Below are positions 2,896 through 29,546 of a stretch of DNA of 64,000 bases, piece after piece. The number at the start of each line of letters is the position of its first letter. The first letter of the stretch is position 1. The DNA comes from Quadrisphaera sp. DSM 44207 (GTDB lineage Bacteria > Actinomycetota > Actinomycetes > Actinomycetales > Quadrisphaeraceae), in the NCBI RefSeq assembly GCF_900101335.1, contig NZ_FNKA01000004.1:62001-126000 (forward strand). Reading direction: 5' to 3'. A program made the position numbers and the translations under genes. A model generated the notes under the pieces. That model was given only the letters and a program-made list of their open reading frames with translations, did no database searches and had not been told where the DNA came from.

Positions 2896-3876
2896 GTGAC
2901 GACGCCGGCCAGCCCGCCCACCGCGCCGCCCACCCCGCCGCGGGTGGTCACCGCCGGGGAGACCCTCGCGCTCCTCGCGCCCTCCGGCCCCGGGCGGCTG
3001 CGGCACGCGCGCGACCTGGCGCTGTCGATCGGGGGCGCGGAGTCGAACGTGGCGATCGGCCTGGCCCGCCTCGGGGTGCCGGTCTCCTGGGTCAGCGCGC
3101 TGGGCGAGGACGAGCTCGGCGAGCTGGTCCTGGCCCGCGTGCGCGCCGAGGGCGTCGACACGTCCGCGGTGCGCCGCGTGCCGGGCCGGCCCACCGGCCT
3201 GTACCTGCGCGAGCAGGTGCTCGGCGGGGTGCGGGTGCACTACTACCGGGCGGGCTCCGCGGCGTCCACCCTCGCCCCCGGGGCGCTGCCGCCGGCGGTC
3301 CTGGACGGCGCCGCCCTCCTGCACCTGACCGGCGTCACACCCGCGCTGTCGGACAGCTGCGCCGAGTTCGTCCTGGACGCGGCGCGCAGCGCGCGCGAGC
3401 GCGGGGCGGCCGTCAGCTACGACGTCAACTTCCGCGGCAAGCTGTGGTCGGCGTCGGCCGCGCGGGCCTTCACCGAGCGCGTGCTGCCCCTGGTCGACGT
3501 CCTCTTCGTCGGGGACGACGAGGCGCAGGCGCTGTGGGGGTGGACGGGCGAGGAGCCGCTGGAGCGGCTGGCCGGCACCGGCCCGCGCGAGGTGGTGCTC
3601 AAGCGCGGCGCGCGGGGCAGCGCCGCGCTCGTGGACGGCGAGCGGCTGGAGGAGCCGGCCCTGCCCGTCCCCGTGCTCGACCCGATCGGGGCGGGCGACG
3701 CGTTCGCCGCCGGCTACCTCGCGGCGTGCCTGGAGGGGCGCCCGCCCGCCGAGCGCCTGGCCACGGGCAACGCCGTGGGCGCCTGCTGCGTGCGCAGCAG
3801 CGGCGACTACGAGGGCCTGCCCGGCCGCGAGGAGCTGCGGGCCCTGCTGGAGGGGACGACCGTCCTCGGGAGGTGA
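2896..3876 (+). CDS. PfkB family sugar kinase (2-keto-3-deoxygluconate kinase-like)
   Basis: A 326-residue ribokinase-fold enzyme. The N-terminus has GETLALLAP and GGAESNVAIGLARLG, typical of KDG kinases. The C-terminal motif DPIGAGDAFAAGY holds the anion hole and catalytic Asp. ATP-dependent phosphorylation of a 2-keto-3-deoxy sugar acid is likely. The GTG at 2896 lies seven bases after the permease stop, and the next gene follows within eight bases, so the operon is tight. The exact substrate cannot be read from sequence. Confidence 0.85.
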   Translation: MTTPASPPTAPPTPPRVVTAGETLALLAPSGPGRLRHARDLALSIGGAESNVAIGLARLGVPVSWVSALGEDELGELVLARVRAEGVDTSAVRRVPGRPTGLYLREQVLGGVRVHYYRAGSAASTLAPGALPPAVLDGAALLHLTGVTPALSDSCAEFVLDAARSARERGAAVSYDVNFRGKLWSASAARAFTERVLPLVDVLFVGDDEAQALWGWTGEEPLERLAGTGPREVVLKRGARGSAALVDGERLEEPALPVPVLDPIGAGDAFAAGYLAACLEGRPPAERLATGNAVGACCVRSSGDYEGLPGREELRALLEGTTVLGR

Positions 3877-3883
3877 GGAGCGC

Positions 3884-4852
3884 ATGAGCACCGGCACGAG
3901 CACCGGCACGAGCACCGGCCAGCCGGAGATCACCGGCGTCCACGTCGCGAACGTGACCCCGTTCCGCGACGACGCCGACTCCTCCGTGGACGTCGAGGCG
4001 TACCTGGGCCACGTGCGCTGGCTGGCCGCCGCCGGCGTCGCGGGCGTCATCCCGTTCGGGACCAACGGGGAGGGCCCCTCGGTGGCGGTGCGCGAGAAGC
4101 GCGCCGTCCTCGACGCGCTCCTCGCGGAGGCGCCGGCGGGCCCCGCGGGAGCGCTGCAGGTCATCCCCGCCGTGACCGAGGCCAACCTGACCGACGCGCT
4201 GGACCTGCTGCGGCACCTGGAGGACCTGCCCGTCACCGCGGTGCTGGTGCTGCCGCCGTACTACTTCCCCGCCGAGGCGGCGGGGCTGCGCGCCTTCTAC
4301 GAGCGCGTGCTGGCCGCCACGCGGCACCGCGTGATCGTGTACCACATCCCCAAGTACGCCGTGCCCGTCCCGCACGAGCTGGTCACCGACCTGCCGGTGT
4401 GGGGCGTGAAGGACTCCGGCGGCGAGCCGGGCTACGCCGAGGCCGTGCGCGCCGGCGGCCGCGGGGTGCTCCTGGGCACCGAGGACGACCTGCCGCGCCG
4501 GCTGCTGACCGCGCAGGGCTCGATCTCCGCGCTCGCCAACATCGTCCCCGAGCAGGTCCTCGCCCTCTACGGGCACGTCCACCGCGGGGAGGCGGAGGAG
4601 GCGCAGCGGCTGTCAGCGCACCTGCAGCAGGTGCGGGCGATGACGAAGGAGCACACCTCCGCCGCCGTCCTCAAGGCCGTGGCCCAGGCCCGGCACGGCG
4701 TGCCCCTGGGCACGGTGCGCCCGCCGCTGGTGCCCCTGCCGGCCGGCTACGACGCCGCCGCGGCCGCGGCGCGCGCCACCGCGGTGCCCGGCGCGCCCGC
4801 GCCGGGCCCGGCCGACGGCGGAGGGGGCGCCCGTGCGGGTGCTGGTCACTGA
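3884..4852 (+). CDS. DapA/NAL superfamily lyase or aldolase
   Basis: A 322-residue Schiff-base TIM-barrel enzyme of the dihydrodipicolinate synthase/N-acetylneuraminate lyase family. The family GTTGE loop reads GTNGEG, the catalytic Tyr lies in VYHIPKY (near residue 152), and the Schiff-base Lys in WGVKDSGG (near residue 175). Beside a KDG-kinase-like enzyme it more likely cleaves or dehydrates a keto-deoxy sugar acid than makes lysine precursors. The first residues are a GTST repeat from three 12-bp units (3886-3921). AGGTGAGGAG precedes the ATG. The end overlaps the next gene by 20 bp. Confidence 0.83.
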   Translation: MSTGTSTGTSTGQPEITGVHVANVTPFRDDADSSVDVEAYLGHVRWLAAAGVAGVIPFGTNGEGPSVAVREKRAVLDALLAEAPAGPAGALQVIPAVTEANLTDALDLLRHLEDLPVTAVLVLPPYYFPAEAAGLRAFYERVLAATRHRVIVYHIPKYAVPVPHELVTDLPVWGVKDSGGEPGYAEAVRAGGRGVLLGTEDDLPRRLLTAQGSISALANIVPEQVLALYGHVHRGEAEEAQRLSAHLQQVRAMTKEHTSAAVLKAVAQARHGVPLGTVRPPLVPLPAGYDAAAAAARATAVPGAPAPGPADGGGGARAGAGH

Positions 4853-5789
4853 CGCGGAGTACGAGCCGCTGGACCTGGAGGCCGCCGTGCTCGCCGAGGG
4901 CGGGCACGAGCTGGTCGTGGCGCACTGCCGCACGGCGGCCGAGGTCGCGCAGGCGGCCCGGGGCGCGGACGCCCTGCTCGTGCAGTACGCGCCGGTGACC
5001 GAGGAGGTCTTCGCCGCCGCGCCGTCGGTGCGGCTGGTCAGCCGCTACGGCGTCGGCGTCGACGGCGTCGACCTGGACGCCGCCCGCCGGCACGGGGTGT
5101 GGGTCGCGAACGTGCCGGACTACGGCGTCGCCGAGGTCGCGCTGCACGCGGTGGCGATGCTGCTGGCGCTGCTGCGCGACCTGCCCGGCCGCGACCGCGC
5201 CGTGCGCGAGCACCGGTGGCACTACGCCGCCGGCGCGCCGCTGCACCGGCCGAGCACGAGGGTCCTGGGCGTGGTGGGGCTGGGCCGGATCGGGCGGCTG
5301 GCCGCCGAGCGGGCCGCGCCGTGGTTCGGCGCCTGCGTCGGCCACGACCCCGCCCTGCCGGACGACGCGTGGCCGCCGTCCGTGGAGCGGGCCGGGCTGG
5401 AGGAGGTCTTCGCCCGCGCCTACGCCGTCACGCTGCACCTGCCCCTGACGGCGCGGACCCAGGGGCTGGTCGGCGACGCCCTGCTGGCCCGCCTGCCCGT
5501 CGGCAGCCACCTGGTGAACACCTCCCGCGGCGGCCTGGTCGACCTCGACGCCGTCCTGCGGGCCCTGGAGTCGGGACGGCTCGCCGGCGTCGCCCTCGAC
5601 GTCCTGCCCAGCGAGCCGCCGGACTGGGACCACCCGCTCGTCGGGCACCCGCGCGCGCTGATCACCCCGCACGCGGCCTGGTACTCGCAGGAGTCCGAGG
5701 CCGAGCTGCGGCGCAAGGCCGCCCGCAACGTGCTGGAGTGGGCGCGCACCGGCGAGCCCCTCCACCCGGTGGTGCGCGGGCGCTCCTGA
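4833..5789 (+). CDS. D-isomer-specific 2-hydroxyacid dehydrogenase
   Basis: A 318-residue NAD-dependent dehydrogenase. The dinucleotide loop VGLGRIGRLA is clear. Catalytic residues are the Arg in NTSRGGLVD, the Glu in LDVLPSEPP and the His in TPHAAWYSQES. The C-dehydrogenase/phosphoglycerate-dehydrogenase type interconverts D-2-hydroxyacids and 2-keto acids. The GTG at 4833 lies inside the lyase gene after GGAGGGGGC, so translation is coupled. It is the last gene of the cluster. With the divergent Ldh2 enzyme, both stereochemical types of hydroxyacid oxidation are present. Confidence 0.85.
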   Translation: MRVLVTDAEYEPLDLEAAVLAEGGHELVVAHCRTAAEVAQAARGADALLVQYAPVTEEVFAAAPSVRLVSRYGVGVDGVDLDAARRHGVWVANVPDYGVAEVALHAVAMLLALLRDLPGRDRAVREHRWHYAAGAPLHRPSTRVLGVVGLGRIGRLAAERAAPWFGACVGHDPALPDDAWPPSVERAGLEEVFARAYAVTLHLPLTARTQGLVGDALLARLPVGSHLVNTSRGGLVDLDAVLRALESGRLAGVALDVLPSEPPDWDHPLVGHPRALITPHAAWYSQESEAELRRKAARNVLEWARTGEPLHPVVRGRS

Positions 5790-5821
5790 GGGCGTGCGCG
5801 GCGGCAGCGCAGGGGAGTCGC

Positions 5822-8383
5822 CTACAGCCGGTCGACCGAGAGCACCCGCACCACGGCGGTGCCGGCCTCGTCCGACGCCGCGAGGTCGACCTCGGCGCTG
5901 ATGCCCCAGTCGTGGTCGCCCGCCGGGTCGTCGAAGACCTGCCGCACGCGCCAGCGCTCGCGCTCCTCCTCCACGAGCAGCAGCGACGGCCCGCGCGCGT
6001 CCGGGCCCGTGCCGAGGTCGGCGTGCTCGGCGGAGTAGCCGGCCATCGCCTCCGCCCAGCGCTGCGCGTCCCAGCCGGCCTCGGCGTCGAGCTCGCCGAG
6101 GTCGGCCCAGCGGCGGCGCGCGGCGAGCTCGACGCGGCGGAAGAGGGCGTTGCGCACCAGCACCCGGAAGGCGCGGCGGTTGGCGGTGACGCCGCGCGGC
6201 GGCGGGGGCGGTGCGGCCGGTGAGCCGGCGTCCTCGGGGTGGGTCAGGGCCTCCCACTCGTCGAGGAGGCTGGAGTCGGTCTGGCGCACGGTCTCCCCGA
6301 GCCACTCCAGGACGTCGGTCAGCTCCTCGGTGCGCTGGGCCTCGGGCACGGTCTGGCGCAGCGCGCGGTAGGCGTCGGAGAGGTAGCGCAGCACCAGGCC
6401 CTCGGAGCGGGCGAGGCCGTAGCGGCGCACGAGGTCGCCGAAGCCCATGGCCTGCTCCCACATGTCCCGCACCACCGACTTCGGCGAGAGCATCTCCGGT
6501 GCCAGCCACGGGTGGGTCTGGCGGTAGGTCTCGAACGCGGCCTCGAGGAGCTCGGCCAGCGGCCGGGGCCAGGTGACCTCCTCGAGCAGCTCCATCCGCT
6601 CGTCGTACTCGACGCCCTCGGCCTTCATCGCCGCGACGGCCTCGCCGCGGGCGGCGTGCGCTTGCGCCAGCAGCACCGGGCGGGGGTCGTCCAGGGTCGC
6701 CTCGACGACGGACAGGACGTCGAGGGCGTGCGTCGGGGAGTCCGGGTCGAGCAGGTCCAGGGCGGCGAGCGCGAACGTCGACAGCGGCTGGTTGAGCGCG
6801 AAGTCGGCCTGCAGGTCGACCGTCAGGCGCACGATCCGCCCGGTCTCGTCCGGCTCCGCGAGGCGCTCGACGACGCCGGCGGCGAGCAGGTCGCGGTAGA
6901 TGGCGATGGCCCGCTTGACCAGGCGCACCTGCGCGGGCCGCTCCTCGTGGTTGTCCAGCAGCAGGTGCTTCAGGTGCAGGTAGGCGTCGCCGGGGCGGGC
7001 GATGACGTTGAGCACCATCGCGTGCGTGATCCGCATGCGGCTGACCAGCGGCTCCGGCGGGGCGGCGACGAGCCGCTCGAAGGTGTTCTGGTCCCAGCTG
7101 ACCGTGCCCTCTGGCGGCTTCTTGCGCACCACCCTGCGCCGCTTCTTGGGGTCCTCCCCCGCCTTCGCCAGGGCGCGGGCGTTCTCGATCGCGTGCTCGG
7201 GCGCCTGGACGACGACGGTGCCGGCGGTGTCGAACCCGGCGCGGCCGGCGCGCCCGGCGACCTGGTGGAACTCGCGGGCGGAGAGCAGGCGGGTGCGCCG
7301 TCCGTCGTACTTGCTCAGCGAGGTCATCAGCACGGTGCGGATCGGCACGTTGATGCCGACGCCGAGGGTGTCGGTGCCGCAGATGACGCGCAGCAGGCCG
7401 GCCTGGGCGAGGGTCTCCACCAGGCGGCGGTACTTGGGCAGCATGCCCGCGTGGTGCACGCCGATGCCGGCGCGCACGAGCTTGGAGAGCACGCGGCCGA
7501 AGCCGGCGGCGAAGCGGAAGTCGCCGATGGTCGCGGCGATGGCGTCCCTGGTGGCCCGGTCGGCGACCGGCGTGCTCAGCAGCGCCTGCGCGCGCTCCAG
7601 GGCCAGCGCCTGCGTCGGGTGGACGACGTAGACCGGCGCCTCCCTCGCCTCCAGCAGCTCGTCGATCGTCTCGTGCACCGGCGTCGTCGCCCACCGGTGG
7701 TGCAAGGGCACGGGCCGCTCCACCGACGTCACGAGCGCCGTGGGCCTCCCCGTGCGGCGGGTGAGGTCCTCCCGAAAGCGCGTGACGTCCCCGAGCGTGG
7801 CGGACATGAGGAGGAACTGCGCCTGCGGCAGCTCCAGCAGCGGCACCTGCCACGCCCAGCCGCGGTCGCGGTCGGCGTAGTAGTGGAACTCGTCCATCAC
7901 GACCTGGCGGAGGTCGCAGCCCGCGCCCTCGCGCAGCGCCCGGTTGGCGAGGACCTCCGCGGTGCAGCAGACGATCGGCGCGTCGGCGTTCACGCTCGCG
8001 TCGCCGGTGACCATGCCGACGGTGGCGGCGCCGAAGACCTCGACGAGGGCGAAGAACTTCTCCGAGACCAGGGCCTTCAGGGGCGCGGTGTAGACGGTGC
8101 GCTCCCCGCGGGCGAGGGCCGCGAAGTGCGCGCCCGTGGCCACCAGCGACTTGCCCGACCCGGTGGGCGTGGCGAGGACGACGTTGGCGCCCGTGACGAC
8201 CTCGATGAGGGCCTCGGCCTGCGCGGGGTACAGCTCCAGGCCCCGCTGGCCCGCCCACGCGGAGAAGGCGTCGAAGAGGGCGTCGGGGTCCGCGCCGGCG
8301 CCGTCCGGGCTGCCGGTCGGGCTGCCGGTCGGGTTGCCGGTCGGGGGGGCGGCGGGCGGCAGCAGGCTGGTCAGGACGCTCAT
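5822..8383 (-). CDS. DEAD/DEAH-box RNA helicase, Ski2-like with DUF3516-type C-terminus
   Basis: About 853 residues. Helicase motifs run in order: Walker A ATPTGSGKS, motif Ia YTAPLKALVSEKF, motif II DEFH, motif III LLMSATLGD, then QVAGRAGRAGFDT (motif VI). The C-terminal half matches the DUF3516 region of actinobacterial Ski2-like helicases, which probably act in RNA turnover. DEFH replaces the more usual DEVH. Two in-frame ATGs lie four codons apart; the second (8383) is preferred because GGGAGG lies 4 bases upstream. A Pro/Thr/Gly/Ser linker from a 12-bp repeat sits near the N-terminus. It ends 32 bp from the convergent dehydrogenase. Confidence 0.88.
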   Translation of the reverse strand: MSVLTSLLPPAAPPTGNPTGSPTGSPDGAGADPDALFDAFSAWAGQRGLELYPAQAEALIEVVTGANVVLATPTGSGKSLVATGAHFAALARGERTVYTAPLKALVSEKFFALVEVFGAATVGMVTGDASVNADAPIVCCTAEVLANRALREGAGCDLRQVVMDEFHYYADRDRGWAWQVPLLELPQAQFLLMSATLGDVTRFREDLTRRTGRPTALVTSVERPVPLHHRWATTPVHETIDELLEAREAPVYVVHPTQALALERAQALLSTPVADRATRDAIAATIGDFRFAAGFGRVLSKLVRAGIGVHHAGMLPKYRRLVETLAQAGLLRVICGTDTLGVGINVPIRTVLMTSLSKYDGRRTRLLSAREFHQVAGRAGRAGFDTAGTVVVQAPEHAIENARALAKAGEDPKKRRRVVRKKPPEGTVSWDQNTFERLVAAPPEPLVSRMRITHAMVLNVIARPGDAYLHLKHLLLDNHEERPAQVRLVKRAIAIYRDLLAAGVVERLAEPDETGRIVRLTVDLQADFALNQPLSTFALAALDLLDPDSPTHALDVLSVVEATLDDPRPVLLAQAHAARGEAVAAMKAEGVEYDERMELLEEVTWPRPLAELLEAAFETYRQTHPWLAPEMLSPKSVVRDMWEQAMGFGDLVRRYGLARSEGLVLRYLSDAYRALRQTVPEAQRTEELTDVLEWLGETVRQTDSSLLDEWEALTHPEDAGSPAAPPPPPRGVTANRRAFRVLVRNALFRRVELAARRRWADLGELDAEAGWDAQRWAEAMAGYSAEHADLGTGPDARGPSLLLVEEERERWRVRQVFDDPAGDHDWGISAEVDLAASDEAGTAVVRVLSVDRL
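8307..8342. repeat. 12-bp tandem repeat (3 units) in the helicase N-terminus
   Basis: Units GGGCTGCCGGTC, GGGCTGCCGGTC and GGGTTGCCGGTC encode the Thr-Gly-(Asn/Ser)-Pro linker of the minus-strand helicase. The repeat stays in frame. Confidence 0.85.
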
Positions 8384-8514
8384 GAGGCCTCCCATCCTCC
8401 CCCGCTGCGACCGTGGGCGTGCACGTCCGGCGCGCCCGACCCGCCTTTCGTCGGAGGCGGCCCGCGACGCCCGGGCGATCCGCGGGCGCCCCGCACCCGA
8501 GCACGCTGGACCGC

Positions 8515-9399
8515 GTGATCGAGATCCGGGACCTGACCAAGCGCTACGCCCGCGCGACCGCCGTCGACCGCGCGTCCTTCTCGTGCCGTCCGGGCACGAT
8601 CACGGGCTTCCTCGGCCCCAACGGGGCGGGCAAGTCCACGACCCTGCGCATGCTCACCGGGCTGACGCCGCCCACCTCGGGCACCGCCACCGTGGACGGC
8701 GTCCCCTACCGGGACCTGCCGAGCCCGGGCCGGGTCGTCGGCGTCCTGCTCGACGCCGCCGCCCAGCACCCCGGCCGCACGGGGCGGGAGTCGCTGCGCC
8801 TGAGCGCCGCGGTGCTCGGCGTCCCGGTCCGCTGCGCCGACGCCTCGCTCGAGCGCGTCGGGCTCGCGGGCGCGGCCGGCCAGCGCGTGGGCCGCTACTC
8901 CCTCGGCATGCGCCAGCGCCTGGGGATCGCGCAGGCGCTGCTCGGGGACCCGGCCGTGCTGGTGCTCGACGAGCCGGCCAACGGGCTCGACCCGGAGGGC
9001 ATCCGCTGGATGCGCCGCCTGCTGCGCGAGTTCGCCGACGGCGGCGGCACGGTGCTCCTGTCCAGCCACCTGCTGCGCGAGGTCCAGGCCACCGCCGACC
9101 GGCTCGTCGTCATCGGCTCGGGGCGGATCGCCGCCGAGGGCGACCTGGCGGCCCTGCTCGGGCGCGGCGGCGTCCTCGTCCGCGGCACCGACCCGGACGC
9201 GCTGCTCGCCGCGCTGCGCGCCGCCGGCCTGCCGGTCTCCTCCACCGGCGGCGGGGAGCTGCGGGTGGACGCGGACGCCGAGTCCGTCGGCCGGGCGGCC
9301 GCCGCGGCCGGCGTCGTCCTGACCGGCCTGCGCCCGGCCGAGGACGACGCCCTCGAGGAGTTCTTCCTCGCCCTCACCGCCGGCGAGCGCGCCGCGTGA
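8515..9399 (+). CDS. ABC transporter ATP-binding protein
   Basis: A 294-residue ATPase: Walker A GPNGAGKST, signature YSLGMRQRL, Walker B VLVLDEPANGLDPEG and switch His in SSHLL. The short C-terminal domain fits drug- or antibiotic-export ATPases (CcmA/NodI type). The GTG at 8515 is chosen because it places the start immediately before the conserved IEIRDLTKRY strand; the open frame to 8413 reads as Arg-rich shadow. The permease gene 60 bases downstream completes the exporter. Confidence 0.87.
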   Translation: MIEIRDLTKRYARATAVDRASFSCRPGTITGFLGPNGAGKSTTLRMLTGLTPPTSGTATVDGVPYRDLPSPGRVVGVLLDAAAQHPGRTGRESLRLSAAVLGVPVRCADASLERVGLAGAAGQRVGRYSLGMRQRLGIAQALLGDPAVLVLDEPANGLDPEGIRWMRRLLREFADGGGTVLLSSHLLREVQATADRLVVIGSGRIAAEGDLAALLGRGGVLVRGTDPDALLAALRAAGLPVSSTGGGELRVDADAESVGRAAAAAGVVLTGLRPAEDDALEEFFLALTAGERAA

Positions 9400-24235: not shown

Positions 24236-24394
24236 TCAGTCCAGGGGGTCGACGACCCGGTCCCGCACCGCGGGGGCGCCGGTCACCACCGGCATCGAGG
24301 AGGGGGCGCGCAGCACGACGCCGCGCCGGCGACGGCGGGCCGCGGCGAGCTGGCGCTCCTGGATCAGGTGGGCGCGCCGGACGGCGCGGGCCAC
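24236..24394 (-). CDS. Possible small basic protein
   Basis: A 52-residue frame from GTG 24394: basic helix VARAVRRAHLIQERQLAAAR followed by four further Arg residues, then SSMPVVTGAPAVRDRVVDPLD. It sits at the far end of the Asp23 operon and looks more coding than the other frames, but the ribosome site is weak. It could be a cytosolic adaptor or chance. Confidence 0.3.
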   Translation of the reverse strand: MARAVRRAHLIQERQLAAARRRRRGVVLRAPSSMPVVTGAPAVRDRVVDPLD

Positions 24395-24453
24395 CCGCGA
24401 GGCCTCGTCGGGCTCCGCGGGCGGGTCCGCGCCGTCCGGCGCCGTGCCGCGGC

Positions 24454-24615
24454 TCAGAGCCCCAGCCCCGCCTCGTCGACCTCGCGGTGGAACCGCGTGC
24501 CGGCCAGGCCGCCGAGGACGGCCCCGACCGGGCTCGCGGCGGCGGCCACGGCCGCGACGAGACCACCGGTGCCGGCCCCGTCCCCGGGAGCGCCCAGGCC
24601 GTCCGCGGTGCTCAT
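24454..24615 (-). CDS. Small hydrophobic-centre protein at the end of the Asp23 operon
   Basis: 53 residues from ATG 24615: MSTADGLGAPGDG, a Gly/Ala/Val-rich middle (GGLVAAVAAAASPVGAVLGG) and an acidic tail ending EAGLGL. The middle could be a short amphipathic or membrane segment. It lies 78 bases after the AmaP gene in the same direction. No family is recognised. Confidence 0.4.
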   Translation of the reverse strand: MSTADGLGAPGDGAGTGGLVAAVAAAASPVGAVLGGLAGTRFHREVDEAGLGL

Positions 24616-24693
24616 GCCGCAGCGCTACCCGCTGCCGCGCCGGTCAACCGGCCGGCAGGTCTCGATCGGATCACGTCCGCAGCGGCCCGCCGC

Positions 24694-25269
24694 TCACCTC
24701 AGGTTGCGGGAGGCGGAGCGCGTCGCGGCGGGGCGCAGCTGGACGTCGACCGGCAGGTCCGGGTCGTCGAGCGCCTGGCGCACGTGCGGCACCGTCTGCT
24801 CCTCCAGGTGGTCGCGCACCGCGGCCAGGTCGGCCCGGTCGCTGAGCTCCACCACCAGGGAGAGCCGGTGCGCGCCCTCCCCGTGCAGCGACGCGGACGC
24901 GCCGGCGACGCCCCGCACCGCGGAGACCTCGTGCTCGACGGCGTCGGCGACGGCTCCGGCGTGCAGGGTGGTCACCCCGTCGCGCTCGTCCTCGGTCAGG
25001 TCGATGCGGCTGGTGCGGTCGGTGCGCAGCTGCGCCGCCAGCCACCGCAGCGCGAGCAGCGCCACGAGCAGGCACACGGCCGCCAGGGCCCACCAGGCCC
25101 ACGGCTGCGTCGAGAAGAGGTCCCGCAGGGGCTGCCACAGCACGGGGCCGCCGGCGGCCCGGGCCCCGAAGGCGCCGAGGCCGAGGGCGAGCCCCAGGCC
25201 GCCGGCGGCGAGCAGCAGCAGGGCGAGCAGGGCCAGCAGCGTGCGGTTGAGGCCGTTGACGCGCTTCAT
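24694..25269 (-). CDS. amaP: Alkaline shock response membrane anchor protein AmaP-like
   Basis: 191 residues with two membrane segments (LLALLALLLLAAGGLGLALG and WWALAAVCLLVALLALRWLA) and a C-terminal cytosolic domain ending LPVDVQLRPAA. In Staphylococcus aureus AmaP anchors Asp23 at the membrane. Here the Asp23-like genes lie just upstream in the same operon, and the ATG overlaps the stop of the DUF6286 gene. Confidence 0.75.
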   Translation of the reverse strand: MKRVNGLNRTLLALLALLLLAAGGLGLALGLGAFGARAAGGPVLWQPLRDLFSTQPWAWWALAAVCLLVALLALRWLAAQLRTDRTSRIDLTEDERDGVTTLHAGAVADAVEHEVSAVRGVAGASASLHGEGAHRLSLVVELSDRADLAAVRDHLEEQTVPHVRQALDDPDLPVDVQLRPAATRSASRNLR

Positions 25270-25817
25270 CGGGACTCCTCACGGGTGAGCGAGACCTGCG
25301 GGCGCAGGGTGCCCGAGAGGCCGAGCTCCTCGAGCCGCTGGGCGACGTTCGCGGTGACGCGCTGCTGCAGGTCGCCCTCCGAGCGCAGCGCCGTGCGCGC
25401 CCGCACGACCGCCTTGCGGCGGCTGACGCGGGCGTCGGCGCGGCTGACGCCCGGCGCGCGGCGCGCCGCCGCGGCGAGGGTGCGCTCGATGCCGCGGCGG
25501 GAGGCCGTCACGCGCACACCGGCCGGGGTGCCTCCGCCGCGCGCGGCCAGCGGCAGCGACGAGGGGCGGCCGCGGCGCAGCGCGGCGAGCAGCAGGAGCA
25601 GCCCGAGCACGACGAGGCCGGCGAGGACGGCCTGCACCACGGGCTGGTCCCAGGTCCGCTGGTCCAGCCAGCTCGCCCACTGCTCGTGCGGCACGAGCCA
25701 GGAGGGCCGCCCCAGCTGGGCGAGCACGACCTCGACGACGGCCAGCAGGCCGCCGAGCAGGAGGGCGAGCGCCAGCAGCGCCGACAGCACGCGGTTGAGG
25801 ACCGCCACGGGGCTCAC
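25266..25817 (-). CDS. DUF6286 membrane protein
   Basis: 183 residues: hydrophobic segments VLSALLALALLLGGLLAVVE and VVQAVLAGLVVLGLLLLLAA, then a soluble domain (GIERTLAAAARRAPGVSRAD, LRPQVSLTREESR). This family co-occurs with Asp23 and AmaP in actinobacteria. It resembles the next gene in having two N-terminal helices and a small alpha/beta domain, so the pair may be distant paralogues. GTGA overlap with the Asp23 gene upstream. Confidence 0.7.
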   Translation of the reverse strand: MSPVAVLNRVLSALLALALLLGGLLAVVEVVLAQLGRPSWLVPHEQWASWLDQRTWDQPVVQAVLAGLVVLGLLLLLAALRRGRPSSLPLAARGGGTPAGVRVTASRRGIERTLAAAARRAPGVSRADARVSRRKAVVRARTALRSEGDLQQRVTANVAQRLEELGLSGTLRPQVSLTREESR

Positions 25818-26233
25818 CGCACCCTCGGGCCGCGGCGGACGGGGACGTCGAGGCTGGTGACCTCGAGGTCGACGTGGTCGACGCGCACGCCCGTGGTGGC
25901 GGCGACCTCCTCGCGCACGACCCGGCGCACCTGGTCGGCGACCGCCCTGACGGACGCGGGCCAGCGCACGGCGACGGTCGCCTCGACGGTGGCGGTGCCG
26001 CCGTGGACGGAGGCGCTCACGGACGCCTCGTCCTCGGTGCGGGAGGAGCCGACGTTGACGCCCAGCACGCGGCGCGGCGCGGCGGTGGCCTCGGGAACGA
26101 GCGTGACCGCGTACCCGGCCACCCGCTCGACGACCCGGTCGGCCACCTCGAGGGTGCCGCGGTCCGCCGGGGAGGGCAGGTCCGAGGGCAGGTCCTGGGC
26201 GAGCTGCAGCGCCGTCCCGGCCGCGGCGCTCAC
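25814..26233 (-). CDS. Asp23/Gls24 family envelope stress response protein
   Basis: 139 residues. GTLEVADRVVERVAGYAVTL is the family start; SVSASVHGGTATVEATVAVR and DQVRRVVREEVAATTGVRVD complete the alpha/beta unit. Asp23 proteins polymerise under the membrane and respond to envelope stress. GTG 26233 overlaps the stop of the small membrane gene upstream. A longer in-frame start exists, but its translation is Arg-rich shadow. Confidence 0.75.
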   Translation of the reverse strand: MSAAAGTALQLAQDLPSDLPSPADRGTLEVADRVVERVAGYAVTLVPEATAAPRRVLGVNVGSSRTEDEASVSASVHGGTATVEATVAVRWPASVRAVADQVRRVVREEVAATTGVRVDHVDLEVTSLDVPVRRGPRVR

Positions 26234-26418
26234 GGCGAGCCGCGGCGGGCGCCGCCGCCGAGGTACTGGGTCAGGTCGAGCTGGCCGGCGGCGACCTTGC
26301 CGACGACGTAGCCGACGGCACCGAGCAGGGCGACGCCGCAGAAGGCGTCGAACCCGCCGATGACCCAGGCGATGCCGAGGAGCAGGCCGGTGAGCAGGCC
26401 CACCGTGGTGGGGGGCAT
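26230..26418 (-). CDS. DUF2273-like small membrane protein
   Basis: 62 residues: two hydrophobic segments (TVGLLTGLLLGIAWVIGGF, GVALLGAVGYVVGKVAAG) and a short polar tail. Small two-helix proteins of this type (DUF2273) sit in Asp23 operons of firmicutes and actinobacteria. GGAGGTTCC precedes the ATG. A stabilising role for the membrane complex is inferred. Confidence 0.7.
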   Translation of the reverse strand: MPPTTVGLLTGLLLGIAWVIGGFDAFCGVALLGAVGYVVGKVAAGQLDLTQYLGGGARRGSP

Positions 26419-26450
26419 GGGGAACCTCCGGGAGGAACGGGACGGGGCTC

Positions 26451-26723
26451 TCAGAGCACCCGGGGCGGACGGCGCCCGCGACCCCGGGCGAGCCGGGGCA
26501 GCAGGCGGGAGGAGCGGCGAAGCAGGAGCCGGAGCGGCGGAGCGAGCCGGCGCAGGCCGCGCGGGCGCCGGACGAAGACGACCTCACCGGCGCCGCGCGG
26601 GGCCCGCTGGAGCTCCTGCAGGGCCCGGACCAGCTCGGCGGGGTCGCCGCCGAGGTCCGGGTGGTGGGCCCGGAGCAGCGCGCGCCGGCGGCGGCGCTGC
26701 TCCGGGTCCTCGGGGGCGGGCAC
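26451..26723 (-). CDS. Small protein with J-domain-like HPD motif
   Basis: 90 residues. The first 45 contain RRALLRAHHPDLGGDPAELV followed by RALQELQ, which copies helix II - HPD loop - helix III of a J domain, the part that stimulates DnaK ATPase. Helix I and the C-terminal DnaJ regions are absent. The rest is Arg/Leu-rich. It lies between Asp23 and DUF2273-like genes, 5 bases from the first. A link between chaperone and envelope stress is inference. Confidence 0.55.
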   Translation of the reverse strand: MPAPEDPEQRRRRRALLRAHHPDLGGDPAELVRALQELQRAPRGAGEVVFVRRPRGLRRLAPPLRLLLRRSSRLLPRLARGRGRRPPRVL

Positions 26724-26728
26724 GGCGC

Positions 26729-27097
26729 TCAGGCCGGGCCGGAGGGCAGCGCCGCCGGCCCGGCCGCGGCGCTCGCGGCCTCCTCGGCGGGCAGCCTCAC
26801 GTCGGCGACGAGGACGTCGACGGGACGGCCGCCCACGAGCGGCGCGACGGCGGCGCGCACCTGCCCGGCCACCACGGCCGCGGGCACGCCCCAGGCGGCG
26901 ACGACGGCGACCTCCACGGGCCCCTCGCCGTCCACCCGCACGCCCGCCACGCGGCGGCCGGGCAGGTACGTGGCGACCTGGCGCAGGCCGCCGGAGTGCA
27001 GGTCGGCGACGGCCGGGCAGGCGCGCACCGCAGCGGCGACGGCGTCGGCCCGCGCCGCTCCCGCCCCGGTGCGCGCAGGGCTCGTCGGGGTGCTCAC
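26729..27097 (-). CDS. Asp23-like small protein
   Basis: 122 residues. AVAAAVRACPAVADLHSGG, VAGVRVDGEGPVEVAVVAAW and VAGQVRAAVAPLVGGRPVDV fit a single Asp23-type unit lacking the usual start. It overlaps the main Asp23 gene by GTGA. The divergence suggests a specialised partner of the two more typical copies. Confidence 0.6.
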   Translation of the reverse strand: MSTPTSPARTGAGAARADAVAAAVRACPAVADLHSGGLRQVATYLPGRRVAGVRVDGEGPVEVAVVAAWGVPAAVVAGQVRAAVAPLVGGRPVDVLVADVRLPAEEAASAAAGPAALPSGPA

Positions 27098-27555
27098 CGG
27101 ACGCGCGCCGGCTCCGGCTGCTGGGCGTCGTCGGTCGGCAGGTGGATGTCGTTGACCGCGATGTTGACCTCGGTCACCTGCAGGCCGGTCATGCCCTCGA
27201 CCTGGCCGATCACGTTGCGGCGCACCGCGCGGGCGACCTCGGCGATGGACACGCCGTACTCGGTGACCAGGTCGAGGTCGATGGCGGCCTGCCGCTCGCC
27301 GACCTCGACGGAGACGCCCTGGCCCGTGGACTGCGAGGAGCCGGGGATGCGCTCGCGCAGGGCGCCGAGCGCGCGGGCGGCGCCGCCGCCCATCTCGTAG
27401 ACGCCGGCGACCTCGCGGGCCGCCAGGCCGGCGATCTTCTGCACGACGCCGTCGGCGATGGAGGTGCGGCCCTCGCTGGTCTGCAGGCCGGACGGCGCGG
27501 CCTGGGCCACGGCGCTCGTCTGGTTGGAGGTGCTGGAGGTGGTGGGGCTGCTCAT
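27094..27555 (-). CDS. asp23: Asp23/Gls24 family envelope stress response protein (operon lead gene)
   Basis: 153 residues. A Ser/Thr/Gln-rich leader is followed by GRTSIADGVVQKIAGLAARE, VSVEVGERQAAIDLDLVTEYG and ARAVRRNVIGQVEGMTGLQV, a full Asp23 domain. GAAGGAGAG precedes the ATG. It is the first of at least seven closely spaced leftward genes and lies only 59 bases from the divergent ECF sigma gene. Such proteins form a membrane-associated scaffold in cell-envelope homeostasis. Confidence 0.88.
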   Translation of the reverse strand: MSSPTTSSTSNQTSAVAQAAPSGLQTSEGRTSIADGVVQKIAGLAAREVAGVYEMGGGAARALGALRERIPGSSQSTGQGVSVEVGERQAAIDLDLVTEYGVSIAEVARAVRRNVIGQVEGMTGLQVTEVNIAVNDIHLPTDDAQQPEPARVR

Positions 27556-27571
27556 GGTGCTCTCCTTCGCG

Positions 27572-27610
27572 GGGTGGACCCGGGTGGACGCGTCCGGGTG
27601 GATACGTTCG
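27572..27610. promoter_or_regulatory. Divergent control region of the Asp23 operon and ECF sigma gene
   Basis: GGGTGGA occurs three times (27572, 27582, 27596). On the minus strand CGAAC (27610-27606) and CGTC (27590-27587) are 15 bp apart, close to an ECF promoter (GAAC, N16, CGTC). It would start transcription just before the Asp23 ATG at 27555. Autoregulation by the adjacent sigma factor is inferred. Confidence 0.4.
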
Positions 27611-27614
27611 GGGC

Positions 27615-28268
27615 GTGCCGCTCCCCTCCGCCGAGCGCGGGACCGACCCGTCGTCGGCGGGCCGCGGGAGCGGTCCACCCCCTTGGACCCCGTCCGGCGC
27701 GGATGGTTACAGCCCTCTTCCACCCGATCCGGCGCCCGAGCTCGAGGCCGCCCTCGTCGAGCACGCGCGCGAGGGCGACGAGGACGCGTTCGCGCAGCTC
27801 GTGCGCCTGCACCAGGACCGCGCCTACGCGGTGGCGCTGCGGATGACGGGGCGCCCGCAGGACGCCCAGGACGTCGTCCAGGAGGCGCTGCTGTACGCGT
27901 GGCGGGGGCTGCCGCGCTACCGCGGGGAGGCCCGCTTCGGCACGTGGCTGATCCGCATCGTCATCAACCGGTGCCACGACCTGCGCCGCCGGGCGCGCGA
28001 GGCGCTCCCGCTGCCCGAGGACGACGGCGCGGCGGGCACGGCGCCCGGCGCGGACGCCGTGGTCGTCGCGGCGGGCCGGCGCGACGCGGCGATCGAGGCC
28101 ATCGCGCGGCTGCCGTTCGACCAGCGGGCCGCCCTGGTGCTGCACACCTTCGGCGGGTGGTCGCACGCGGAGGTGGCGCGCACCCTGGGGACCACGGAGG
28201 GAGCGGTCAAGGTCCGGGTGCACCGAGCACGACGGGCCCTGCTGGAGCAGCTGGAGGAGTGGCGGTGA
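27615..28268 (+). CDS. ECF RNA polymerase sigma factor
   Basis: 217 residues. Region 2 is at about residues 45-115 (FAQLVRLHQDRAYAVALRMT, DAQDVVQEALLYAWRGL, TWLIRIVINRCHDLRRR) and region 4 at about 160-215 (AIARLPFDQRAALVLHTFGG, SHAEVARTLGTTEGAVKVRV). A 40-residue Pro-rich leader precedes them. Its stop overlaps the GTG of a zinc-motif/Asp23 protein, the usual place of a cognate anti-sigma factor. It probably controls this envelope-stress island. Confidence 0.88.
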   Translation: MPLPSAERGTDPSSAGRGSGPPPWTPSGADGYSPLPPDPAPELEAALVEHAREGDEDAFAQLVRLHQDRAYAVALRMTGRPQDAQDVVQEALLYAWRGLPRYRGEARFGTWLIRIVINRCHDLRRRAREALPLPEDDGAAGTAPGADAVVVAAGRRDAAIEAIARLPFDQRAALVLHTFGGWSHAEVARTLGTTEGAVKVRVHRARRALLEQLEEWR

Positions 28269-28939
28269 GCGTCGGCGCGGCACCCGGGGAGCAGGAGCGC
28301 CTGCCCTGCGGCACGGACCACGAGGAGCTGGTGGCCCAGGTGGTCGACGGCGCCCCGGCGCGCGACCCCGCGCACCAGGGCGCCTGCCCGCACTGCCGGG
28401 CGGTGCTGGCGCAGCTGCGCCAGGCATGGGCCCCGGTCCTGCAGCTGCAGCGCGAGCACGTGCGCGCTCCCGCGCAGCTGCTCGCGGACGTCGTGGCGCG
28501 CGTGCGGGCGCTGCCGCGCAGCACCTGGTACGCGGTGCTGCCCACCGAGGACGGCGAGACGCGCATCTCCGCGCGCGTGGTCGGCGCGGTGGCGCGGCTG
28601 GCCGCGCAGGAGGTCCCGTCGGTCTCCCTGGCGCTCGGGCGCGGCCGCGCGGCCGCCGGGGGGACCGACGGGGCGGCGGGCGCGGACGGCGCGGAGGCGA
28701 CGCACGTCGGCGTGGCGGGCTCGAGCGTCGTCGTCGACGTGCGCGTCGTCGTCACGATGGGCACGCACCTGCCGAGCGCCGCGCAGCGCGTGCGGGAGGT
28801 CGTCACCCGCCGGCTGGCGCAGGTGACGGGCCTGTCGGCCAGCGCGGTCGACGTCACCGTCGTCGACGTCGCCCTCGACGGCTTGGGCGAGGTGCGGGCG
28901 GACGATGCTGGGGAGCCCCGTTCCGGGCCCGCCGGGTGA
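28265..28939 (+). CDS. Zinc anti-sigma-like motif joined to an Asp23-like domain
   Basis: 224 residues. The N-terminus has His37-x3-Cys41-x2-Cys44 (AHQGACPHCRAVLAQL), the exact spacing of the zinc-binding anti-sigma (ZAS) motif. The C-terminal part (ARVVGAVARLAAQEVPSVSL, VDVRVVVTMGTHLPSAAQRV, RRLAQVTGLSASAVDVTVVD) has Asp23-domain features. No membrane segment is obvious. It is coupled to the ECF sigma gene by GTGA. I infer a soluble anti-sigma factor that senses state through Asp23-type interaction with the divergently encoded envelope proteins. Confidence 0.7.
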   Translation: MSVGAAPGEQERLPCGTDHEELVAQVVDGAPARDPAHQGACPHCRAVLAQLRQAWAPVLQLQREHVRAPAQLLADVVARVRALPRSTWYAVLPTEDGETRISARVVGAVARLAAQEVPSVSLALGRGRAAAGGTDGAAGADGAEATHVGVAGSSVVVDVRVVVTMGTHLPSAAQRVREVVTRRLAQVTGLSASAVDVTVVDVALDGLGEVRADDAGEPRSGPAG

Positions 28940-28965
28940 GACGCCTCACACCGCGCTCGCAACGG

Positions 28966-28991
28966 GGTTCCCCGACGCCGGCACGGGGTAT
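28966..28991 (+). promoter_or_regulatory. SigB-like promoter
   Basis: GGTT (28966-28969), 16-bp spacer, GGGTAT (28986-28991): close to the actinobacterial general-stress SigB-type consensus (GNTT, N14-16, GGGTAT). It lies in the gap before the PGPGW membrane protein gene. Confidence 0.45.
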
Positions 28992-29057
28992 CGCCGCCCT
29001 CCGGGCGCACCTGCGCCCGCGGGAGCGACCGCTGGTGGCGGCGGAGAGGACGGGCCC

Positions 29058-29546
29058 ATGGCCAAGCGCATCGCGGTGACGGTCGTCGGAGCGGTGCTGC
29101 TGCTCATCGGCGTGGCCCTCATGGTCCTGCCCGGCCCCGGCATCCTGCTCATCGTCGCCGGCCTCGCCGTGCTCGCCTCCGAGTACGCCTGGGCGCGCCG
29201 GCTGCTGCGCCGGGCGCGGGCGCGCGCCGAGCAGGCGCAGCGCGCCGCGGTGAGCAGCCCCATGCGCACGGCGGCCAGCGTGGTCTTCGCCCTCGGCATG
29301 GTGGGCCTCGGCATCGCGATGCAGGTGGTGCCGGACGTCGCCTGGCCGGTGCGGGACGACCTGCTCGACGCCGTGTGGCGCTCGCTGACCGGCTGGGTGC
29401 TCATCGTCACCGGGCTGATCCTGCTGGTCACCACGGCCGTGGCGCTGCGCGACGGGCGCCGCGCCGCCCGGGCCGGAGCGGGCCGCTCCGCCGCGGACGG
29501 CGGTGCGCACCAGCCCGTCGGCACCGGCGCGCGCCCGCTCGGCTGA
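29058..29546 (+). CDS. PGPGW family membrane protein
   Basis: 162 residues with four membrane segments. VLPGPGILLIVAGLAVLASE followed by YAWARRLLRRAR matches the PGPGW/TIGR02611 actinobacterial membrane family. A second hydrophobic pair follows (VVFALGMVGLGIAMQVVP, GWVLIVTGLILLVTTAVAL). Function unknown. The upstream stress-type promoter and the location after the Asp23 island suggest an envelope-stress role. Confidence 0.75.
   Translation: MAKRIAVTVVGAVLLLIGVALMVLPGPGILLIVAGLAVLASEYAWARRLLRRARARAEQAQRAAVSSPMRTAASVVFALGMVGLGIAMQVVPDVAWPVRDDLLDAVWRSLTGWVLIVTGLILLVTTAVALRDGRRAARAGAGRSAADGGAHQPVGTGARPLG

What the first reader, a model, noticed from the sequence alone, without database searches (positions are those of the whole stretch)
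24236..29546. Asp23/AmaP envelope-stress island with its own ECF sigma factor and a hybrid ZAS-Asp23 anti-sigma
A leftward operon carries three Asp23-like proteins, AmaP, DUF6286, a DUF2273-like protein, a J-like protein and perhaps two more small proteins. Only 59 bases away and divergent is an ECF sigma gene coupled to a protein with an exact Hx3Cx2C anti-sigma motif fused to an Asp23-like domain. This suggests that the sigma factor is held by a protein able to join the Asp23 scaffold, so scaffold state could directly set sigma activity. I know of no described system with that wiring.
Basis: partly seen in the sequence, partly recalled or inferred. Interest (0 to 1): 0.8.

Follow-up and report, generated by a model that had tools for sequence, protein, structure and literature searches.

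The report
Sigma switch tied to Asp23 scaffold
A high-GC actinobacterium, like many Streptomyces and Nocardia, carries a small gene switch that probably turns on the genes for a membrane-lining protein scaffold, and the protein that should hold the switch off is itself part scaffold protein, so the cell may sense its own scaffold.

Summary
Window 28265-28939 encodes a protein with an N-terminal zinc-type anti-sigma domain and a C-terminal Asp23 domain; it overlaps ECF sigma gene 27615-28268 by four bases and lies divergent from an Asp23/DUF6286/AmaP operon. The C-x21-H-x3-C-x2-C ligands recur in distant relatives, and a profile of the domain has the zinc anti-sigma factor RslA as best PDB match (E 1.3e-4); fold comparison also ranks RslA first, but weakly.

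"No described system" is too strong: a 2022 review (PMC8999054), citing a paper I could not read, says groups ECF286 and ECF292 sit beside Asp23-family proteins predicted to be anti-sigma factors, mechanism unknown.

New here: a promoter-like motif (GTnAC-N16-TGTCnAA) lies before many sigma and asp23 genes of relatives, and the window's best-scoring position of 127,940 lies before its asp23 operon, though with a modest score. So sigma probably makes the scaffold genes while its inhibitor carries a scaffold domain: a closed loop. Zinc ligands are missing in several lineages while the Asp23-like domain stays, which argues against redox sensing as the general signal. Binding of the hybrid to sigma or to the scaffold is untested.

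The parts
27094..27555 (-). asp23A: main Asp23 protein, first gene of the leftward operon
   Evidence: Pfam Asp23 107.3 bits; 74% identical in G144
26729..27097 (-). short Asp23-like protein
   Evidence: Pfam Asp23 15.5 bits, below cut-off; 62% identical in G144
26451..26723 (-). small protein with truncated J-domain-like HPD stretch
   Evidence: no family match; 61% identical over 61 aa in G144
26230..26418 (-). DUF2273-like small membrane protein
   Evidence: 14.6 bits, below cut-off; 80% identical in G144
25814..26230 (-). asp23B: second Asp23 protein
   Evidence: Pfam Asp23 39.6 bits
25266..25817 (-). DUF6286 protein, AmaP-related
   Evidence: Pfam DUF6286 82.9 bits; NCBIfam AmaP 43.8 bits, below cut-off 55
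24694..25269 (-). AmaP, predicted membrane anchor of Asp23
   Evidence: NCBIfam AmaP 62.4 bits, cut-off 55
27682..27712 (-). ECF-type promoter-like site before asp23A (GTAAC-N16-GGTC-CAA)
   Evidence: best score (12.5; next 11.3) of 127,940 window positions with a matrix trained on other loci, whose own sites score 22.9 or more; pattern widened at one position occurs once in the whole genome
27615..28268 (+). ECF sigma factor; start codon uncertain
   Evidence: Sigma70_r2 70.2 bits, Sigma70_r4_2 64.3 bits; starts; tree
28265..28939 (+). hybrid, probable anti-sigma factor: N-terminal zinc anti-sigma domain plus C-terminal Asp23 domain
   Evidence: Asp23 50.1 bits; model pLDDT 80.4, pTM 0.56; 4-base overlap with sigma gene
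28295..28519 (+). anti-sigma (ASDI/ZAS) domain, residues 11-85: three-helix bundle, linker, fourth helix
   Evidence: model pLDDT 88.0; profile hits RslA E 1.3e-4, RsiW 0.053; Foldseek rank 1 RslA at E 5.9; Z 3.8 RslA and 2.5 ChrR
28307..28396 (+). zinc ligands C15 (28307), H37 (28373), C41 (28385), C44 (28394)
   Evidence: C15, C41, C44 invariant and H37 at 90% or more in 12 sequences, the window and 11 chosen relatives
28529..28873 (+). Asp23 domain of the hybrid, residues 89-203
   Evidence: Pfam match 96-202; strands and helices in the model
29058..29546 (+). PGPGW / TIGR02611-like membrane protein downstream; link to the system not shown
   Evidence: Pfam PGPGW 66.1 bits; open frame begins at 28905

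Best explanation
The sigma factor directs transcription of the neighbouring asp23-AmaP operon, and in Streptomyces, Nocardia and Pseudonocardia also of its own operon. The overlapping gene makes a soluble anti-sigma factor whose N-terminal zinc domain (three-helix bundle plus a fourth helix) clamps the sigma factor, and whose C-terminal Asp23 domain is the sensory and tethering part that joins or competes for the membrane-bound Asp23/AmaP lattice. When the lattice is intact, the hybrid is held in a form that keeps sigma; when the lattice is short or disrupted, sigma is released and refills it: a homeostatic loop with very few targets. Shown by computation: gene pair, fusion, similarity to zinc anti-sigma factors, shared motif before sigma and asp23 genes. 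Inferred: sigma binding (about 0.85 likely), sigma driving asp23 (about 0.85 in the family, 0.75 in the window), Asp23 domain reading the lattice (about 0.5), sign of the loop (about 0.6 given the previous step).
For: A hybrid-type gene overlaps the sigma stop by 4 or 10 bases in 106 of 107 loci (four of the 107 are repeat fetches of the window; I took the start codon nearest to a 4-base overlap). Zinc anti-sigma relation: profile best PDB hit RslA, RsiW also listed; Foldseek rank 1 RslA, and of 32 chains re-aligned the only two at Z 2 or more are RslA and ChrR. Same sigma type with a stand-alone version of the anti-sigma domain and no Asp23 part in G209, so the domain is a module. Motif: 42 hits of the extended pattern, 39 in the 330-nt upstream windows that make up 3.9% of the strand length searched; window rank 1 of 127,940 lies before asp23A; two plasmids not used in training: ranks 1 and 2 before sigma and asp23A, and rank 1 before sigma. 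All three Asp23 matches over cut-off in the genome lie in this island. In S. aureus AmaP anchors Asp23, Asp23 forms filaments, and deleting asp23 or amaP induces the cell wall stress response (passages of PMC6954212), the sign expected of the loop.
Against: Foldseek E-value for RslA is 5.9, equal to that of an unrelated thioesterase at rank 2, and Z is only 3.8. Three C2H2 zinc-finger proteins score between RslA and RsiW in the profile search, and no Pfam model matches the window's N-terminus above its cut-off. The window site scores 12.5, below every training site (22.9 or more) and little above the next window position (11.3), and has GGTC where the pattern has TGTC; the window's own sigma gene has no site (best + strand site ranks 652); in G043 none of the five best sites lies close before asp23A, and in G144 the site ranks third. 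In four of nine genomes with the pair (G026, G043, G556, G459) the strict pattern is absent from the locus. Some pairs have no strong Asp23 gene nearby: L107 and Pseudonocardia plasmid L189 (L067 and L071 are short contigs), and in 9 of 64 divergent named loci it lies 2.8-3.0 kb away. One other ECF of the window's genome (L155) falls inside the sigma group on the quick tree. Nothing here tests binding.
Confidence: 0.6

Rival explanations
1. Redox switch: the zinc cluster is the sensor, as in RsrA, RshA or ChrR; oxidants eject zinc and free sigma, and the Asp23 domain is only a fold scaffold or localiser.
For: All four ligands kept in the window and in 11 of 23 loci found without the Cys pattern; soluble zinc anti-sigma factors often sense redox (PMC7406223 and PMC8999054, passages).
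Against: Ligands fully or partly lost in 12 of those 23 loci, 4 state changes on the sigma tree, while the Asp23-like domain and the gene pair stay. PMC7406223 notes zinc can be structural, as in RsiW.
Confidence: 0.2
2. Titration with positive feedback: newly made Asp23 binds the hybrid and pulls it off sigma, so the circuit amplifies and latches on under envelope stress.
For: Same anatomy as the best explanation; the motif lies before asp23 and, in several genera, before sigma itself.
Against: In S. aureus loss, not gain, of Asp23 or AmaP turns on the stress response (PMC6954212).
Confidence: 0.2
3. The hybrid is not an anti-sigma factor: it is an accessory scaffold protein with a structural zinc site, and sigma is controlled by its own transcription.
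For: Deposited annotation names such proteins Asp23/Gls24 family (4 of 5 records, one 'hypothetical protein'); fold similarity to RslA is weak by E-value.
Against: Profile match to RslA and RsiW, overlapping gene order with sigma, stand-alone N-terminal domain beside the same sigma type.
Confidence: 0.1

Closest known systems
ECF groups ECF286 (model: Streptomyces rimosus WP_003983642.1) and ECF292 (Mycolicibacterium cosmeticum WP_036395736.1), as told in PMC8999054
   Same: ECF sigma gene beside a soluble Asp23-family protein predicted to be its anti-sigma factor; here 79 of 80 named loci, mostly Streptomyces, have the sigma gene beside the hybrid in the fetched DNA
   Different: The passages seen give no mechanism, no zinc domain and no target for these two groups; the defining paper (10.1093/nar/gkaa1229) was not held, so whether it mentions them is unknown
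Zinc class I anti-sigma factors (ASDI/ZAS): RslA, ChrR, RsiW, RsrA
   Same: C/H-x(n)-H-x3-C-x2-C, three-helix bundle, linker, fourth helix; gene next to its ECF sigma
   Different: C-terminal domain is Asp23 instead of a cupin (ChrR), a membrane span or another sensor; no Pfam anti-sigma model matches the window protein
Asp23/AmaP envelope system of Staphylococcus aureus
   Same: asp23 and amaP in one operon (PMC6954212); a DUF2273 protein there too is recalled
   Different: There asp23 is under SigB (recalled), and I know of no sigma/anti-sigma pair with an Asp23 domain in that organism (recalled)

Membership tests
Zinc-type class I anti-sigma factors (ASDI/ZAS) | H-x3-C-x2-C with an upstream Cys or His ligand | tested here: met
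   C15, H37, C41, C44 in the window; conserved in chosen relatives, lost in some lineages
Zinc-type class I anti-sigma factors (ASDI/ZAS) | three-helix bundle, flexible linker, fourth helix (PMC7406223) | tested here: met
   helices 19-28, 35-40, 42-63, then 70-85 or 70-82 in the two models; predicted, not solved
Zinc-type class I anti-sigma factors (ASDI/ZAS) | similarity to solved ASDI structures | tested here: inconclusive
   sequence profile E 1.3e-4 to RslA; fold rank 1 but E 5.9, Z 3.8
Zinc-type class I anti-sigma factors (ASDI/ZAS) | gene adjacent to its ECF sigma | tested here: met
   4-base overlap in the window; 106 of 107 loci
Zinc-type class I anti-sigma factors (ASDI/ZAS) | binds and inhibits the sigma factor | not testable with these tools
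   needs a binding or transcription assay
Asp23 protein family (PF03780) | score over Pfam's gathering cut-off | tested here: met
   50.1 bits against 28; of 58 hybrid-type sequences 31 match Asp23 and 20 match DUF6286 at E 0.01 or better
Asp23 protein family (PF03780) | oligomer formation and anchoring by AmaP | not testable with these tools
   reported for S. aureus Asp23
ECF286 or ECF292 | sigma sequence falls in the group by its published model | not tested
   models and reference sequences not on hand; Streptomyces rimosus was not among the 80 loci kept of 138
ECF286 or ECF292 | soluble Asp23-family protein encoded next to the sigma gene | tested here: met

The most novel reading that the evidence does not exclude
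The anti-sigma factor is a doped subunit of the Asp23/AmaP lattice: it co-assembles with Asp23 under the membrane, so lattice occupancy or strain is read directly by an embedded anti-sigma domain, and the sigma factor has essentially one job, to rebuild that lattice. This would be a cytoskeleton-like polymer that measures itself and controls its own synthesis, and it would work with or without zinc.
Probability: 0.3. Interest if true: 0.8.

Novelty: new variant of a known kind. Interest (0 to 1): 0.55.

Why it matters
The molecular function of Asp23 is still called unclear, and deletion of asp23 or amaP in S. aureus strongly induces the cell wall stress response (PMC6954212, passages); how is not explained in what I read. 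Here a probable transcription-factor inhibitor carries an Asp23 domain and the sigma factor appears to target the asp23 genes, so one can ask genetically what the lattice senses, with very few promoters as read-out. It also offers the poorly understood groups ECF286/ECF292 a testable mechanism and a candidate promoter, if the window's sigma belongs with them.

Tried and rejected
Reading the cluster as chance: rejected. Zinc as the general sensor: made unlikely by its loss in several lineages. Searching fold libraries with the whole hybrid: the Asp23 domain filled the list with MamM C-terminal domains (best Z 11.0, rmsd 1.5, 75 residues); no anti-sigma chain is among the 50 rows shown, so the N-terminus was modelled alone. 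Foldseek's list of 11 for that model holds no anti-sigma factor besides RslA. Plasmid DNA search with the window island at high identity: no match. A sigma-direction promoter in the window: none found. Genus-level search for closer relatives: only the window's own genome. First motif scans gave patchy results before the N16 spacing became clear. A lone PDB search with the single hybrid protein gave one hit, RslA, at E 0.1. My first notebook entry numbers the ligands 38, 42, 45; 37, 41, 44 is right.

Literature: searches. In their listings I saw no paper besides PMC8999054 that links Asp23 proteins to an ECF anti-sigma factor; the listings are capped and the library lacks most subscription papers. 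PMC8999054, PMC9769785, PMC6954212, PMC11350273 and PMC7406223 were seen as passages found by terms; all others as search listings.

Choices that shaped counts: the 80 named loci were picked by patterns that include the Cys motif, so their zinc tally is biased and only the 23 other loci are quoted for it. Those 23 came from searches with the window hybrid or a profile led by zinc-bearing members and hold near-duplicates such as L006/L007 and L012/L014/L017; L005 is not among them because its sigma gene is split. Alignment A7 left out L068, L074 and L082 because my expression for the Cys pair missed them, and left out the lineages without zinc ligands except L010, L035 and L037; one row (L083) was cut at the wrong place by the same expression. 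The 128 asp23 upstream regions include Asp23 genes far from any such sigma gene. The motif pattern was set after looking at upstream regions; its tests outside the training set are the window, L161-L163 and the two plasmids, one of them from Streptomyces like much of the training set. In one search one position was widened after I had seen the window site.
Full report
WHAT IS THERE. The window lies in a 3.2-Mb, high-GC genome; that it is an actinobacterium is inferred from its relatives. The leftward operon holds Asp23 (27094-27555), a short Asp23-like protein, a small HPD-containing protein, a DUF2273-like protein, a second Asp23, DUF6286 and AmaP. The weak members are supported by synteny: genome G144, in another family of the same order, has the same order of genes with 52-80% identity. 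Divergently, an ECF sigma gene is followed, with a four-base overlap, by the hybrid. The three Asp23 matches over cut-off in the whole genome are all in this island, and one of them is the hybrid.

THE HYBRID. Residues 11-85 form helices 19-28, 35-40, 42-63 and 70-85, followed by the Asp23 domain 89-203 (AlphaFold2, mean pLDDT 80.4, pTM 0.56, 58 sequences; N-terminus alone 88.0, pTM 0.69, 48 sequences). This is the layout of class I anti-sigma domains as described in PMC7406223 (bundle of helices 1-3, flexible linker, helix 4; passages). The profile of the N-terminal domain has as best match in 177,635 distinct PDB sequences the M. tuberculosis anti-sigma factor RslA (E 1.3e-4); RsiW is listed at 0.053, with three unrelated C2H2 finger proteins between. 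Foldseek against 350,542 PDB chains ranks RslA first, but with E 5.9, the same as the unrelated rank 2; of 32 chains re-aligned only two reach Z 2, RslA (Z 3.8, rmsd 4.0, 60 residues) and ChrR (Z 2.5, rmsd 11.4, 67 residues), both zinc anti-sigma factors. The fold evidence is weak alone; that sequence and fold comparison both put a zinc anti-sigma factor first is the argument. No Pfam model matches the window's domain above its cut-off, and the weak matches of the other members are scattered, zf-HC2 once at 0.023. Deposited annotation names such proteins Asp23/Gls24 family in 4 of 5 plasmid records.

HOW WIDESPREAD. In 198 genomes of the order 70 had any match to the hybrid at E 0.001, most of the rows to the Asp23 domain alone. 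In 396 genomes of the phylum 162 matched the profile at 1e-5; among the rows shown, matches that begin in the anti-sigma domain and run through the Asp23 domain come from 9 genomes including the window's, and G209 has the anti-sigma domain without Asp23. In the named collection 138 stretches encode a relative and the best 80 were kept, Streptomyces and Nocardia: 76 of 80 have sigma and a strong Asp23 gene (64 divergent, 12 on the same strand), 3 have sigma without one in the fetched DNA (two on short contigs, one not), and 1 has no sigma in the fetched DNA. In 55 of the 64 divergent loci the Asp23 gene is next to sigma, in 9 it lies 2.8-3.0 kb away; in the 12 Nocardia loci it lies about 1.4-1.5 kb downstream. 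In G026 sigma and asp23A are about 4.6 kb apart. Of 107 loci with this sigma type, 106 have a hybrid-type gene overlapping the sigma stop by 4 or 10 bases (four are repeat fetches of the window). Sigma, hybrid, Asp23 and a DUF6286-Asp23 gene sit together on linear plasmid p1 of Streptomyces longhuiensis; a Pseudonocardia plasmid has sigma and hybrid without a further annotated Asp23 gene within 5 kb.

ZINC. In 12 sequences (the window and 11 chosen relatives) C15, C41 and C44 are invariant and H37 nearly so. In the 23 loci not chosen by the Cys pattern, 11 keep all four ligands, 1 has Arg for His, 3 keep only the last Cys, and 8 have lost the region. On the sigma tree (quick method, 51 rows) this needs 4 changes; the window's sigma, on a long branch, groups with two zinc-bearing relatives at support 82, and one other ECF of the same genome falls inside the group, so the group is not cleanly separated. 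The Asp23-like domain and the gene pair persist where zinc is gone, so zinc is more likely structural or a lineage feature than the general signal.

THE TARGET. Upstream regions share GTnAC-N16-TGTC. GTGAC-N16-TGTC with at most one mismatch occurs before 44 of 104 sigma genes (shuffled mean 7.65, highest 14) and 30 of 128 asp23 genes (4.45, highest 8). The extended pattern GT[ACG]AC-N16-TGTCnAA has 42 hits in the loci held then; 39 lie in the upstream windows (22 sigma, 17 asp23), which are 3.9% of the strand length searched. A matrix from 35 such sites, none from the window, puts its best score among 127,940 window positions at 27712-27682 on the minus strand, about 127 bases before asp23A. 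The score is modest: 12.5, next position 11.3, lowest training site 22.9. That the top position falls in the right place would happen by chance in well under 1% of cases (300 of 127,940 positions, my estimate). In G026 the top site (15.1, next 4.6) is also just before asp23A; in G144 an exact pattern match there ranks third; in G043 none of the five best is close before asp23A. In two plasmid records not used in training the top sites are before sigma and asp23A (S. longhuiensis, 34.5 and 23.5, next 5.9) and about 250 bases before the annotated sigma start (Pseudonocardia, 18.1, next 8.9). In 11 whole genomes the strict pattern has 21 hits against 14 for the reversed control; 7 of the 21 lie at the sigma/asp23 locus of five genomes, including both hits of G301 and the only hit of G144; four genomes with the pair (G026, G043, G556, G459) have none there. 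The other 14 hits are at background level, which suggests a very small regulon. In the window's genome the pattern, widened at one position, occurs once, before asp23A.

MECHANISM. Sigma most likely drives the asp23 operon; the hybrid most likely holds sigma through its N-terminal domain; the Asp23 domain is the conserved candidate sensor. In S. aureus Asp23 is anchored by AmaP, forms filaments, and deletion of either gene induces the cell wall stress response (PMC6954212, passages). A loop in which a missing or damaged lattice frees sigma would fit that sign. Binding, release and sign are inferred, not shown.

PRIOR WORK. [quoted passage not shown] The source classification was not held. So the pairing is known as a prediction. 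The anti-sigma/Asp23 fusion, the zinc losses and the asp23-directed motif were not seen in the listings and passages of searches, which cannot exclude that the 2021 paper or its supplement holds them. I therefore call it a new variant of a known kind.

Noticed in passing
L161 (G144:C83), about 3480-8957: In genome G144 the same sigma gene is split by about 5.5 kb holding ORFs that read like a DDE transposase, an ATPase, a serine recombinase, an arsenite-permease-like protein, an ArsR-like and a CadD-like protein (names from reading, no family search), while the anti-sigma gene and the asp23 operon stay intact: a natural sigma disruption.
   Followed up: partly
L044 / L164 (G209:C224): Same sigma type followed by a 115-aa anti-sigma domain without Asp23, then an MscS-like channel ORF, and a YeaQ/GlsB-like small membrane protein upstream (the last two names from reading).
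   Followed up: partly
window 26451-26723; L161 1863-2060 (-); L059 2477-2881: A truncated J-domain-like protein with an HPD stretch sits in the Asp23 operon of the window and of G144, and a similar stretch lies near an Asp23 gene in another genome of the phylum; no Pfam model matches the first two.
   Followed up: partly
window 27572-27603: Three copies of GGGTGGA(C/T) between the divergent starts, just outside the asp23 promoter-like site.
   Followed up: no
L006 and L007, asp23-sigma intergenic region: A palindrome TGTGA-N6-TCACA, like a CRP site, between the divergent genes of L006, with one change in L007, two relatives of the same family as the window.
   Followed up: no
L188 5648-5983 and 4944-5651: In Streptomyces longhuiensis plasmid p1 a small ORF with an Asp23-like end (from reading) follows the hybrid, and the hybrid there lacks the His of the zinc motif.
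   Followed up: no
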